64,000 bases of DNA from Yersinia enterocolitica (lineage in GTDB: Bacteria > Pseudomonadota > Gammaproteobacteria > Enterobacterales > Enterobacteriaceae). The stretch spans positions 2,046,001 through 2,110,000 of the forward strand of contig NBTC02000002.1 in assembly GCA_002082245.2 (NCBI GenBank). Reading direction: 5' to 3'. Numbering within the stretch: position 1 is the first letter of the stretch; each line of letters begins with the position of its first letter. The notes beneath the pieces were generated by a model, which saw only the letters and a program-made list of their open reading frames with translations, was not told where the DNA came from and searched no databases. Positions 14,223 to 16,976 of this stretch are shown in pieces. A program made the position numbers and the translations under genes.

Positions 14223-16976
14223 ATGTTGCAAACCACAGTGCTGGCCTTGCATGGTCTTTCCTGTATGAATTGTGCCAAGCGAGTGAAGACCGCCTTAGAA
14301 AGTCGTGAAGATATTCATCATGCTGAAGTCGACGTTAACTATGCCAAAGTGACCGGTGAAGCCGATATCAACACGCTGATTGATACTGTCAAACAAGCCG
14401 GTTATCAGGCAGAAGCAGCCCAAACACCCGATACACAATTACAGCTCTCAGGCTTAAGTTGCGGTCATTGTACTGAAGCTACACGCAAAGCGCTGGAAGC
14501 CGTTCCCGGTGTGATTGCGGCCGTGGTAAGTGTGGATAGCGCGAAAGTGTATGGCAAAGCTGATCCGCAGGTGCTGATTAATGCCGTGGAACAGGCGGGT
14601 TATCACGCCGCACTGCCAGGTGCCCTATCCCCAAAAACTGAGCCGCTGACTCACTCAGCCCCATCTCAGCCGGAATATCAGGCAGCGGCCTCTTCAACTA
14701 TTCCGGCAGTAACACCTGAGATTAATAAAACAGAGACCGCTAACCCAACCACAGCGGTAGATATCGATAGCGTCCAGTTATTACTAACCGGAATGAGCTG
14801 TGCCAGTTGCGTATCCAAAGTACAACATGCTCTGGAAGGGGTTGATGGGGTTGAGGTTGCGCGCGTCAATTTGGCGGAACGTAGCGCGTTAGTCACCGGT
14901 AACCCAAGCAATGAAGCCTTAATCGCAGCCGTCAAAAATGCCGGTTATGGTGCAGAAATTATTGAAGACGAAGGCGAGCGCCGCGCACGTCAGCAACAGA
15001 TGTCCCAAGCCAGTATGAAGCGCTTCCAATGGCAAGCAGCGCTGGGCCTGCTGTTGGGTATCCCACTGATGGGATGGGGGTTATTCGGCGGCAGTATGAC
15101 GCTAACGCCAGAAACCCAGACGCCGTGGCTTATTGTCGGGGTGATTACTCTGCTGGTGATGATATTTGCGGGTGGCCATTTCTATCGCAACGCCTGGATC
15201 AGCCTGAAAAATGGCAGTGCCACCATGGATACCTTAGTGGCACTAGGTACCGGAGCGGCGTGGCTCTATTCCATTACGGTGAATATCTGGCCGGATGTTT
15301 TCCCGATGGAGGCGCGCCACCTCTATTATGAAGCCAGCGCCATGATAATCGGTTTGATTAACCTTGGTCATGCGATGGAACAACGCGCCAGACAGCGCTC
15401 ATCTAATGCGTTGGAGCGACTGCTGGACCTGGCACCACCGACAGCACGGCGGGTATCTGACGACGGCGAGCAAGTGATCCCTCTGGCTGAGGTCCAATTG
15501 GGCATGACCTTGCGTCTGACTACCGGTGACCGAGTACCGGTTGATGGTGAAATTGTGCAGGGCGAAGTGTGGATGGACGAAGCCATGCTGACCGGCGAAC
15601 CTATCCCACAACAAAAATCAGCAGGTGATGTGGTACATGCAGGTACCCAAGTAGAGGATGGGTCGGTACTGTTCCGCGCCAATGCCATTGGTAGCCAAAC
15701 TACACTGGCTCGCATCATCAAACTGGTTCGTCAGGCGCAAAGCAGTAAACCAGAAATCGGCAAATTGGCGGACCGAATCTCGGCGGTATTTGTGCCAACC
15801 GTGGTGGCAATTGCTGTTATCGCCGGGCTGATTTGGTATTTCCTCGGTCCACAGCCTCAGTTGGTGTACACCCTGGTGGTTGCTACCACAGTGCTCATTA
15901 TCGCTTGTCCCTGCGCGCTTGGACTGGCGACGCCGATGTCTATCATCTCTGGCGTCGGGCGGGCGGCCGAGTTTGGTGTTTTGGTACGTGATGCCGATGC
16001 ATTGCAGCAAGCCAGTAATCTCGATACGTTGGTGTTCGACAAAACCGGCACACTAACGGAAGGTCACCCGCAAGTGGTGGCAATTCATACCTTTAACGGT
16101 GTCAGCGAACAACAAGCGCTGGGATGGGCCGCAGCACTAGAAACCGGCTCTAATCACCCATTGGCTCGCGCTATTTTGCAACGTGCCGAAGGGCTGACGC
16201 TGGCTACCGTCAGTCAGTTCCGCACCTTACGTGGCTTGGGTGTCAGTGGTGAAGTTGACGGCATTCCTTTGTTGCTAGGGAACAACCGCCTGCTGGAGGA
16301 ACAGAGCATTGATACCCGTGAGTTGCAATCACTCATGCAGCAGCAAGCTGAAAGTGGTGCTACCCCGGTTATCCTCAGCGCGATGGGTAAACCCGCGGCA
16401 CTGCTGTCGATCCGCGACCCACTGCGCAGCGACAGTGTCAGCGCTCTGCAACGGTTGCATCAACTGGGATACAGTCTGGTGATGTTAACCGGTGATAACC
16501 CAATTACCGCCAATGCCATTGCCAAAGAAGCCGGTATTGATCAGGTGATCGCGGGTGTATTGCCGGAGGGTAAAGCTGAGGCTATCAAGCAACTGCAAGC
16601 CGCCGGACATAAAGTGGCGATGATTGGTGATGGTATCAATGATGCCCCTGCACTGGCACAAGCGGATGTTGGGATTGCCATGGGTGGTGGTAGTGATATC
16701 GCGATTGAAACTGCGGCTATCACGCTAATGCGCCACAGTCTGCATGGGGTTGCGGATGCCGTGGAGCTTGCCAAAGCAACATTGCGCAATATGAAGCAAA
16801 ACCTATTGGGTGCGTTTTTCTACAACGCACTGGGTATTCCGATTGCTGCGGGAATTCTGTTCCCGTTCACCGGAACATTACTTAGCCCGGTGGTGGCAGG
16901 GGCGGCCATGGCGCTGTCATCCATTACCGTAGTCAGCAACGCTAACCGTTTACTGCGTTTTAAACCTAAGCAGTAA
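14223..16976 (+). CDS. copA: Cu(I)-exporting P1B-type ATPase CopA
   Basis: Inner-membrane copper export pump of 917 residues. Three N-terminal heavy-metal-binding domains carry CxxC at C14/C17, C80/C83 and C193/C196; E. coli CopA (834) has two. The membrane part follows from about residue 270, with the TGEP actuator motif, the copper site CPC at 562-564, phosphorylation motif DKTGT at D606, TGDN, and GDGINDAPAL. AAGGAG precedes the ATG. Expression is probably CueR-controlled. A predicted -1 frameshift site after the second metal-binding domain is listed separately. Confidence 0.96.
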   Translation: MLQTTVLALHGLSCMNCAKRVKTALESREDIHHAEVDVNYAKVTGEADINTLIDTVKQAGYQAEAAQTPDTQLQLSGLSCGHCTEATRKALEAVPGVIAAVVSVDSAKVYGKADPQVLINAVEQAGYHAALPGALSPKTEPLTHSAPSQPEYQAAASSTIPAVTPEINKTETANPTTAVDIDSVQLLLTGMSCASCVSKVQHALEGVDGVEVARVNLAERSALVTGNPSNEALIAAVKNAGYGAEIIEDEGERRARQQQMSQASMKRFQWQAALGLLLGIPLMGWGLFGGSMTLTPETQTPWLIVGVITLLVMIFAGGHFYRNAWISLKNGSATMDTLVALGTGAAWLYSITVNIWPDVFPMEARHLYYEASAMIIGLINLGHAMEQRARQRSSNALERLLDLAPPTARRVSDDGEQVIPLAEVQLGMTLRLTTGDRVPVDGEIVQGEVWMDEAMLTGEPIPQQKSAGDVVHAGTQVEDGSVLFRANAIGSQTTLARIIKLVRQAQSSKPEIGKLADRISAVFVPTVVAIAVIAGLIWYFLGPQPQLVYTLVVATTVLIIACPCALGLATPMSIISGVGRAAEFGVLVRDADALQQASNLDTLVFDKTGTLTEGHPQVVAIHTFNGVSEQQALGWAAALETGSNHPLARAILQRAEGLTLATVSQFRTLRGLGVSGEVDGIPLLLGNNRLLEEQSIDTRELQSLMQQQAESGATPVILSAMGKPAALLSIRDPLRSDSVSALQRLHQLGYSLVMLTGDNPITANAIAKEAGIDQVIAGVLPEGKAEAIKQLQAAGHKVAMIGDGINDAPALAQADVGIAMGGGSDIAIETAAITLMRHSLHGVADAVELAKATLRNMKQNLLGAFFYNALGIPIAAGILFPFTGTLLSPVVAGAAMALSSITVVSNANRLLRFKPKQ
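14630..14707 (+). promoter_or_regulatory. Predicted programmed -1 frameshift signal in copA
   Basis: Heptamer C CCA AAA (14630-14636, codons 136-138) lies in the correct X XXY YYZ phase. A shift to -1 reads CCC AAA AAC then TGA at 14639-14641, so the product stops after 139 residues. After a 5-nt spacer, GCCGCTG (14642-14648) pairs with CAGCGGC (14683-14689). The loop segment 14669-14677 pairs over nine bases with 14699-14707, forming an H-type pseudoknot. E. coli copA uses the same mechanism to make the chaperone CopA(Z). The frameshift here is inferred from sequence. Confidence 0.75.

What the first reader, a model, noticed from the sequence alone, without database searches (positions are those of the whole stretch)
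14630..14707. copA carries a complete -1 frameshift cassette that would release a two-domain copper chaperone
Seen: heptamer C CCA AAA in phase at codons 136-138, -1 stop TGA at 14639-14641, 5-nt spacer, stem 14642-14648/14683-14689 and a second 9-bp pairing 14669-14677/14699-14707 forming an H-type pseudoknot. Known: E. coli copA makes the chaperone CopA(Z) by -1 frameshifting at a CCCAAAG site after its first metal-binding domain. Here CopA has three metal-binding domains and the site follows the second, so the predicted product is a 139-residue tandem-domain chaperone rather than a single domain. This would be a structural variant of the known system.
Basis: partly seen in the sequence, partly recalled or inferred. 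Interest (0 to 1): 0.78.

Follow-up and report, generated by a model that had tools for sequence, protein, structure and literature searches.

The report
Frameshift releases two-domain copper chaperone
This copper-pump gene carries a conserved signal that should make some ribosomes slip and stop early, so that the gene also yields a small copper-carrying protein with two copper-binding domains instead of the one known from E. coli.

Summary
CopA (14223-16976, 917 aa, three HMA domains) has C CCA AAA in frame at 14630-14636, a -1 TGA at 14639-14641 and, after a 5-nt spacer, an H-type pseudoknot (7 and 9 bp). No protein was measured.

Comparison supports it strongly. 24 of 25 genomes of the genus keep heptamer and stop. 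The gene's least synonymously changing windows cover the cassette. In 61 family representatives the pseudoknot shows compensatory changes (covariation score reached by 0 of 500 shuffles). Of 227 copA loci scanned, 136 carry the cassette, always in the linker before the last metal-binding domain, with one (45), two (80), three (10) or four (1) domains upstream, all with CxxC. Of 83 further, more distant loci, none has it there. E. coli K-12 has the same cassette after one domain, and RefSeq annotates its product as a soluble Cu(+) chaperone.

So this is the E. coli kind of copA frameshift site, predicted here to release a 139-residue two-domain chaperone. The release point stays put while domains are gained and lost. 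That is a new variant of a known kind. The founding papers could not be read, so earlier notice is possible.

The parts
14223..16976 (+). copA, Cu(I)-exporting P-type ATPase, 917 aa, three N-terminal HMA domains
   Evidence: NCBIfam NF007952 CopA 1655 bits over cut-off 1316
14241..14408 (+). metal-binding domain 1 (GLSCMNC)
   Evidence: PF00403 hit G000:C2:2060241-2060408
14439..14606 (+). metal-binding domain 2 (GLSCGHC), last domain before the frameshift site
   Evidence: PF00403 hit G000:C2:2060439-2060606
14630..14636 (+). slippery heptamer C CCA AAA, in frame at codons 136-138
   Evidence: kept in 24 of 25 genus genomes
14639..14641 (+). -1 frame stop TGA, one codon after the slip
14642..14648 (+). 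pseudoknot stem 1, 5' arm GCCGCTG
   Evidence: identical in 25 of 25 genus genomes; covariation
14669..14677 (+). pseudoknot stem 2, 5' arm GCCGGAATA
14683..14689 (+). pseudoknot stem 1, 3' arm CAGCGGC
   Evidence: codons GCA GCG GCC in 25 of 25 genus genomes
14699..14707 (+). pseudoknot stem 2, 3' arm TATTCCGGC
14223..14641 (+). reading region of the predicted 139-residue frameshift product with two HMA domains (zero frame to 14636, then -1)
14787..14948 (+). metal-binding domain 3 (GMSCASC), kept only in the full-length pump
   Evidence: PF00403 hit G000:C2:2060787-2060948
13538..14014 (-). cueR, Cu(I)-responsive regulator, divergent from copA
   Evidence: TIGR02044 CueR 188 bits over cut-off 147
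14027..14047 (.). inverted repeat ACCTTCC-N7-GGAAGGT between cueR and copA, like a CueR operator (motif recalled, not tested)
   Evidence: read

Best explanation
Ribosomes translating copA pause on the pseudoknot at 14642-14707 while CCA and AAA of the heptamer occupy the P and A sites. In a fraction of passages both tRNAs re-pair one base back (CCC, AAA), one more codon (AAC, Asn) is read, and translation ends at TGA 14639-14641. The gene thus gives a full-length three-domain pump and a soluble 139-residue protein with the first two copper-binding domains, which should act as the pump's cytosolic copper chaperone. Shown here: the elements, their conservation and covariation, and intact CxxC in both domains. 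Inferred: that slippage occurs in this organism, its efficiency, and the chaperone role.
For: Elements exact. 24 of 25 genus genomes keep heptamer plus -1 stop; the 19-base pattern occurs once in each of those 24 genomes, in copA. Of 888 15-codon windows the 14 lowest in synonymous change lie within codons 131-158 and the 25 lowest within 127-165 (best ratio 0.085). In 61 representatives 41 double-change cells against 16.9 in shuffles (0 of 500), 8 pairs with a change on both sides against 4.9 (1 of 500), covariation score 0.130 against 0.086 (0 of 500). Pseudoknot at <=1 of 100 shuffles in 125 of 136 cassette loci against 6 of 55 linkers without the scored cassette, three of those six being decayed or altered cassettes (L027, L266, L276). 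Slippery-for-slippery replacement in L276 (A AAA AAA) and L136 (A AAA AAG) with the -1 stop kept. Same cassette in E. coli K-12, where RefSeq lists the joined product as soluble Cu(+) chaperone. A review states that the E. coli event uses slippery sequence, pseudoknot and nascent chain (PMC7558416, passages). In 25 of 25 genus genomes every PF00403 match lies in a long ORF (749 aa or more), so no stand-alone HMA protein was found.
Against: No protein or ribosome-profiling data. G017 (L027) has lost the heptamer (TCG CCA AAA), keeps the pseudoknot and has no separate HMA gene. The expected inverse relation between cassette and separate short HMA genes was not seen: 7 of 28 genomes scored cassette-negative against 9 of 31 cassette-positive ones have a short HMA ORF under 250 aa (some may be MerP, as three lie beside a 560-580 aa HMA ORF). 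Eight of 136 cassette loci gave no pseudoknot or one above 5 of 100 shuffles within 85 nt; with 300 shuffles 3 of 14 loci tried gave none and L144, L221 and L251 were reached by 13-18 shuffles. The count of further pair types was not unusual (137 of 500). A nested hairpin inside loop 1 competes with stem 1 in the minimum-energy fold.
Confidence: 0.87

Rival explanations
1. Frameshifting occurs, but its role is to lower the amount of full-length pump (a translational attenuator); the truncated protein is a by-product.
For: A -1 stop one codon after the slip would also suit a plain attenuator.
Against: All upstream domains of the 136 cassette loci keep CxxC (45 of 45, 160 of 160, 30 of 30, 4 of 4 domains), and the site falls after a whole domain, 54-60 codons past its CxxC in 135 of 136 loci. 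In E. coli the product is annotated as a chaperone.
Confidence: 0.1
2. The product is made, but only one of its two domains works as chaperone; the other is a passenger whose duty lies in the full-length pump.
For: Loci with one upstream domain carry either the first type or the second type (37 of 43 resemble domain 1, 6 resemble domain 2), so one may be enough.
Against: CxxC is kept in both domains in 80 of 80 two-domain loci.
Confidence: 0.25
3. The conserved stretch is an RNA element with another role (regulatory RNA, mRNA stability), and the heptamer is incidental.
For: The pseudoknot outlives the heptamer in L027 and L273.
Against: Heptamer, -1 stop and spacing are kept together with the pseudoknot; in-frame CCCAAAR is found almost only at this site (136 of 140); two replaced heptamers are again slippery. 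No Rfam match.
Confidence: 0.04

Closest known systems
E. coli copA programmed -1 frameshifting, product CopA(Z) (Meydan 2017, Drees 2017: neither held; seen only as cited in PMC7558416, PMC9548414 and PMC10187127, and through the RefSeq annotation)
   Same: Same gene, same linker, CCCAAA heptamer, one codon then -1 stop, stems CCGCTG/CAGCGG and CGGAAGC/GCTTCCG
   Different: Heptamer CCCAAAA instead of CCCAAAG; two metal-binding domains precede the site, so 139 aa with two CxxC motifs instead of about 70 aa with one
CopZ/Atx1 family of stand-alone copper chaperones
   Same: HMA domains with CxxC; NCBIfam NF047957 CopZ family metallochaperone, 162 bits over cut-off 85, three stretches in CopA
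   Different: Not a separate gene; two domains in tandem. PMC7558416 (figure legend and section 4.1 passages) describes CopZ-like proteins as about 70 residues with a single Cu site
H. influenzae multi-copy copZ locus (PMC10187127, passages incl. abstract)
   Same: Several chaperone units beside copA
   Different: Separate tandem genes, not tandem domains released by frameshifting
dnaX -1 frameshifting (recalled)
   Same: -1 slippage giving a truncated product
   Different: Different gene; its heptamer A AAA AAG (recalled) appears here only as a replacement in L136

Membership tests
copA -1 frameshift system (E. coli CopA(Z) type) | X XXY YYZ heptamer in phase in the linker after a metal-binding domain | tested here: met
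   C CCA AAA at 14630-14636
copA -1 frameshift system (E. coli CopA(Z) type) | -1 stop directly after the slip | tested here: met
   TGA 14639-14641, one codon on; same in 24 of 25 genus genomes. In the 136 loci it is part of how the cassette was scored
copA -1 frameshift system (E. coli CopA(Z) type) | downstream mRNA pseudoknot | tested here: met
   0 of 300 shuffles; covariation; same stems in K-12
copA -1 frameshift system (E. coli CopA(Z) type) | stimulation by the CopA nascent chain | not testable with these tools
   reported for E. coli in PMC7558416 (passage); codons 130-136 just upstream vary within the genus
copA -1 frameshift system (E. coli CopA(Z) type) | truncated product made in cells and acting as chaperone | not testable with these tools
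   needs protein evidence
CopZ/Atx1 copper chaperones | HMA domain with CxxC | tested here: met
   PF00403 hits over cut-off for both domains; CxxC in both
CopZ/Atx1 copper chaperones | single domain of about 70 aa encoded by its own gene | tested here: not met
   two domains, 139 aa, inside copA
any Rfam family | covariance-model match | tested here: not met
   no match with E up to 1 in 14000-17200

The most novel reading that the evidence does not exclude
The cassette is a fixed release point tied to the membrane-proximal domain of CopA, while the domain array in front of it grows and shrinks (1 to 3, once 4 domains; at least 23 changes of number on the tree of 159 loci, outgroups included). 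Evolution thereby sets how many copper sites the freed chaperone carries. Tandem-domain chaperones, able to hold two or more Cu(I) or to pass copper within one molecule, would then be common in this family of bacteria, and the one-domain E. coli protein would be only one setting.
Probability: 0.55. Interest if true: 0.65.

Novelty: new variant of a known kind. Interest (0 to 1): 0.5.

Why it matters
Bacterial CopZ-like copper chaperones are described as one-domain proteins of about 70 residues (PMC7558416, passages). Here a conserved recoding signal predicts two- and three-domain chaperones in many genera of the family, cut from the pump gene at one fixed point. It gives natural variants that differ in the number of released domains, so one can ask directly what extra metal-binding domains in front of copper pumps are for. 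The synonymous conservation and the compensatory changes are also independent evidence for the copA pseudoknot; the lack of synonymous conservation was one of the arguments against the human ATP7B claim (PMC9548414, part 1 of 3 read).

Tried and rejected
Chance heptamer: rejected. Simple hairpin instead of pseudoknot: the nested fold of the bare region prefers other hairpins, but the stems tested for covariation, with support, are those of the pseudoknot; the nested hairpins were not tested for covariation.

Separate copZ gene as alternative source of chaperone: none found in the genus. The wider test of an inverse relation gave no support (7 of 28 against 9 of 31; the 28 'negative' genomes include four with an altered, replaced or decayed cassette besides G503: G017, G531, G543, G034).

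Is E. coli domain 1 the counterpart of window domain 1 or 2? K-12 domain 1 scores 159.5 to window domain 1 and 127.5 to domain 2; 37 of 43 single upstream domains resemble domain 1 (compared with a random 25 of the 78 two-domain loci left after setting aside L142-L145 and L221). Whether two domains is the ancestral state is not resolved: inner branches of the tree have low support (33, 56).

Cassettes outside the window's family and group f9: only L221 (four domains upstream), where relatives have none in the linker and the pseudoknot is weak (18 of 300 shuffles); it may be chance or separate. An upstream Shine-Dalgarno-like stimulator was looked for only by eye; no conserved one was seen.

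Rows and bias: loci were fetched mostly best-hit-first with a three-domain query, from part of the 142 order genomes and 238 family genomes with a match, so the counts of one-, two- and three-domain loci are not frequencies. The 227 loci are L005-L029, L035-L048 and L115-L302. The other 66 loci (L049-L114) were scanned only at the end: 63 gave an ORF, none has the cassette; L051 and L084 have an in-frame CCCAAAG far downstream. Twenty more order loci (L309-L328) have none in the linker; L327 has an in-frame CCCAAAA ahead of its first domain. Of the 227, L041 gave only a partial ORF (514 aa) without domains and counts as cassette-free; L035 and L282 are the same ORF; the 136 cassette loci hold 132 distinct 110-base segments. 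Covariation used 61 of 131 loci (near-identical rows left out; L142-L145 and L221 excluded). The tree used 159 of 227 loci.

Full report
What is there. The window holds cueR (13538-14014, minus strand) and divergently copA (14223-16976), named by NCBIfam at scores over cut-off for TIGR02044 CueR and NF007952 CopA. CopA has 917 residues and three HMA domains. Codons 136-138 are TCC CCA AAA, so C CCA AAA is in phase at 14630-14636; the -1 frame reads CCC AAA AAC TGA, with the stop at 14639-14641. Five bases after the heptamer an H-type pseudoknot can form: 14642-14648 with 14683-14689 (7 bp) and 14669-14677 with 14699-14707 (9 bp). None of 300 dinucleotide shuffles reached its stacking energy. 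All coordinates of the finding are right.

Conservation in the genus. All 25 genus genomes held have a copA matched in one piece or two. 24 of 25 keep heptamer, spacing and -1 stop in the linker between domains 2 and 3, and the pattern CCCAAARNCTRANCCGCTG occurs exactly once in each of those 24 genomes and not in G017. In G017 (L027) codon 136 is TCG, which breaks the heptamer while the pseudoknot remains. A codon alignment shows that the 15-codon windows with the least synonymous change in the whole gene cover this cassette (ratio 0.085 of expectation for codons 137-151, lowest of 888 windows; the 14 lowest lie within codons 131-158). Both arms of stem 1 are the same in 25 of 25 (within GAG CCG CTG and GCA GCG GCC), although amino acids in the loops vary.

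Across the order. I scanned 227 copA-like loci from searches of the genus, the family and the order and the 14 best named genome contigs. 136 have CCCAAA[A/G] in frame with a -1 stop after one codon. In each of these exactly one metal-binding domain lies downstream; one (45 loci), two (80), three (10) or four (1) lie upstream. The distance from the preceding CxxC to the site is 54-60 codons in 135 of 136 and 70 in one. In-frame CCCAAAR occurs 140 times in 203,118 codons, 136 of them here. All upstream domains keep CxxC. Of 20 more order loci and 63 more distant loci, none has the cassette in the linker. Two loci scored as negative carry replaced heptamers at the same place with the -1 stop kept, A AAA AAG in L136 and A AAA AAA in L276; L266 keeps the heptamer but not the near stop; L273 and L027 have lost the heptamer.

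The pseudoknot. In an alignment of 61 representatives 88.9% of cells pair against 85.4% in shuffles (0 of 500). 41 cells have changes on both sides against 16.9 (0 of 500), and the covariation score is 0.130 against 0.086 (0 of 500); structures slid by 1-3 columns pair in 18-54% of cells. The number of further pair types was not unusual (137 of 500). As that tool says, such shuffles ignore kinship, so the counts are not probabilities. Examples are CCGTTG/CAACGG for CCGCTG/CAGCGG in L138, L140 and L141, and CTGGAA/TTCCAG for CCGGAA/TTCCGG in L035 and L279. In group f9, L143 forms the same topology from other letters (0 of 300). A pseudoknot at or below 1 of 100 shuffles is found in 125 of 136 cassette loci and in 6 of 55 linkers without the scored cassette, three of which (L027, L266, L276) are altered cassettes. 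Eight cassette loci gave none or exceeded 5 of 100; three of them, L227-L229, have a longer first loop.

History. On a tree of the pump core (159 loci, FastTree) the number of domains before the last needs at least 23 changes, and heptamer type or absence 12 (outgroup rows included in both). Single upstream domains resemble mostly the first, sometimes the second domain of the tandem form (37 and 6 of 43). So domains seem to come and go while the release point stays before the last domain. Which state is ancestral is not resolved.

E. coli. In K-12 the heptamer CCCAAAG starts at the last base of codon 67, after one domain, followed by the same two stems. RefSeq lists a joined CDS of copA as soluble Cu(+) chaperone. 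The review PMC7558416 (passages) says that efficient frameshifting in E. coli rests on slippery sequence, pseudoknot and nascent chain, and describes CopZ-like chaperones as about 70 residues with one site; PMC5009743 (passages) gives the E. coli product as 70 residues. PMC9548414 (part 1 of 3 read) accepts the E. coli case and argues against the human one.

What counts against. No expression evidence exists here. G017 lost the heptamer without a separate chaperone gene. The idea that cassette-free genomes carry separate chaperone genes instead was not borne out (7 of 28 against 9 of 31), so the lack of a separate gene is weak support.

Novelty. Searches of the held library for copA with frameshifting, Yersinia, metal-binding domains, slippery sequence or pseudoknot listed, as far as titles and abstract starts show, no paper on a multi-domain product; one search found no paper, and one search showed 20 of 22. 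The two founding papers are not held. From recall, the abstract of Meydan 2017 says that similar elements occur in copA of other bacteria, so the site as such may be partly known. I judge it a new variant of a known kind.

Noticed in passing
L276 and L136, linker before the last domain: The slippery heptamer was replaced by another slippery one (A AAA AAA; A AAA AAG) while the -1 stop stayed in place.
   Followed up: partly
L266, linker: Heptamer and pseudoknot kept, near -1 stop lost; the -1 frame would run about 17 codons further.
   Followed up: partly
L023, linker: The downstream arm of stem 2 (TTCCGG) appears shifted downstream, so loop 3 would be longer.
   Followed up: no
L227-L230, linker: About 18 extra bases in pseudoknot loop 1; the stem sequences are kept.
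   Followed up: no
136 cassette loci: Heptamer type goes with domain number: CCCAAAA in 79 of 80 two-domain loci, CCCAAAG in 33 of 45 one-domain loci; may be shared ancestry.
   Followed up: no
group f21 loci L147, L148, L150, L152, L153: Three-domain CopA without cassette, and in these five genomes no short HMA ORF was found; the source of a chaperone is unclear.
   Followed up: no
window 14027-14047: Perfect inverted repeat ACCTTCC-N7-GGAAGGT between cueR and copA, like a CueR operator (motif recalled).
   Followed up: no
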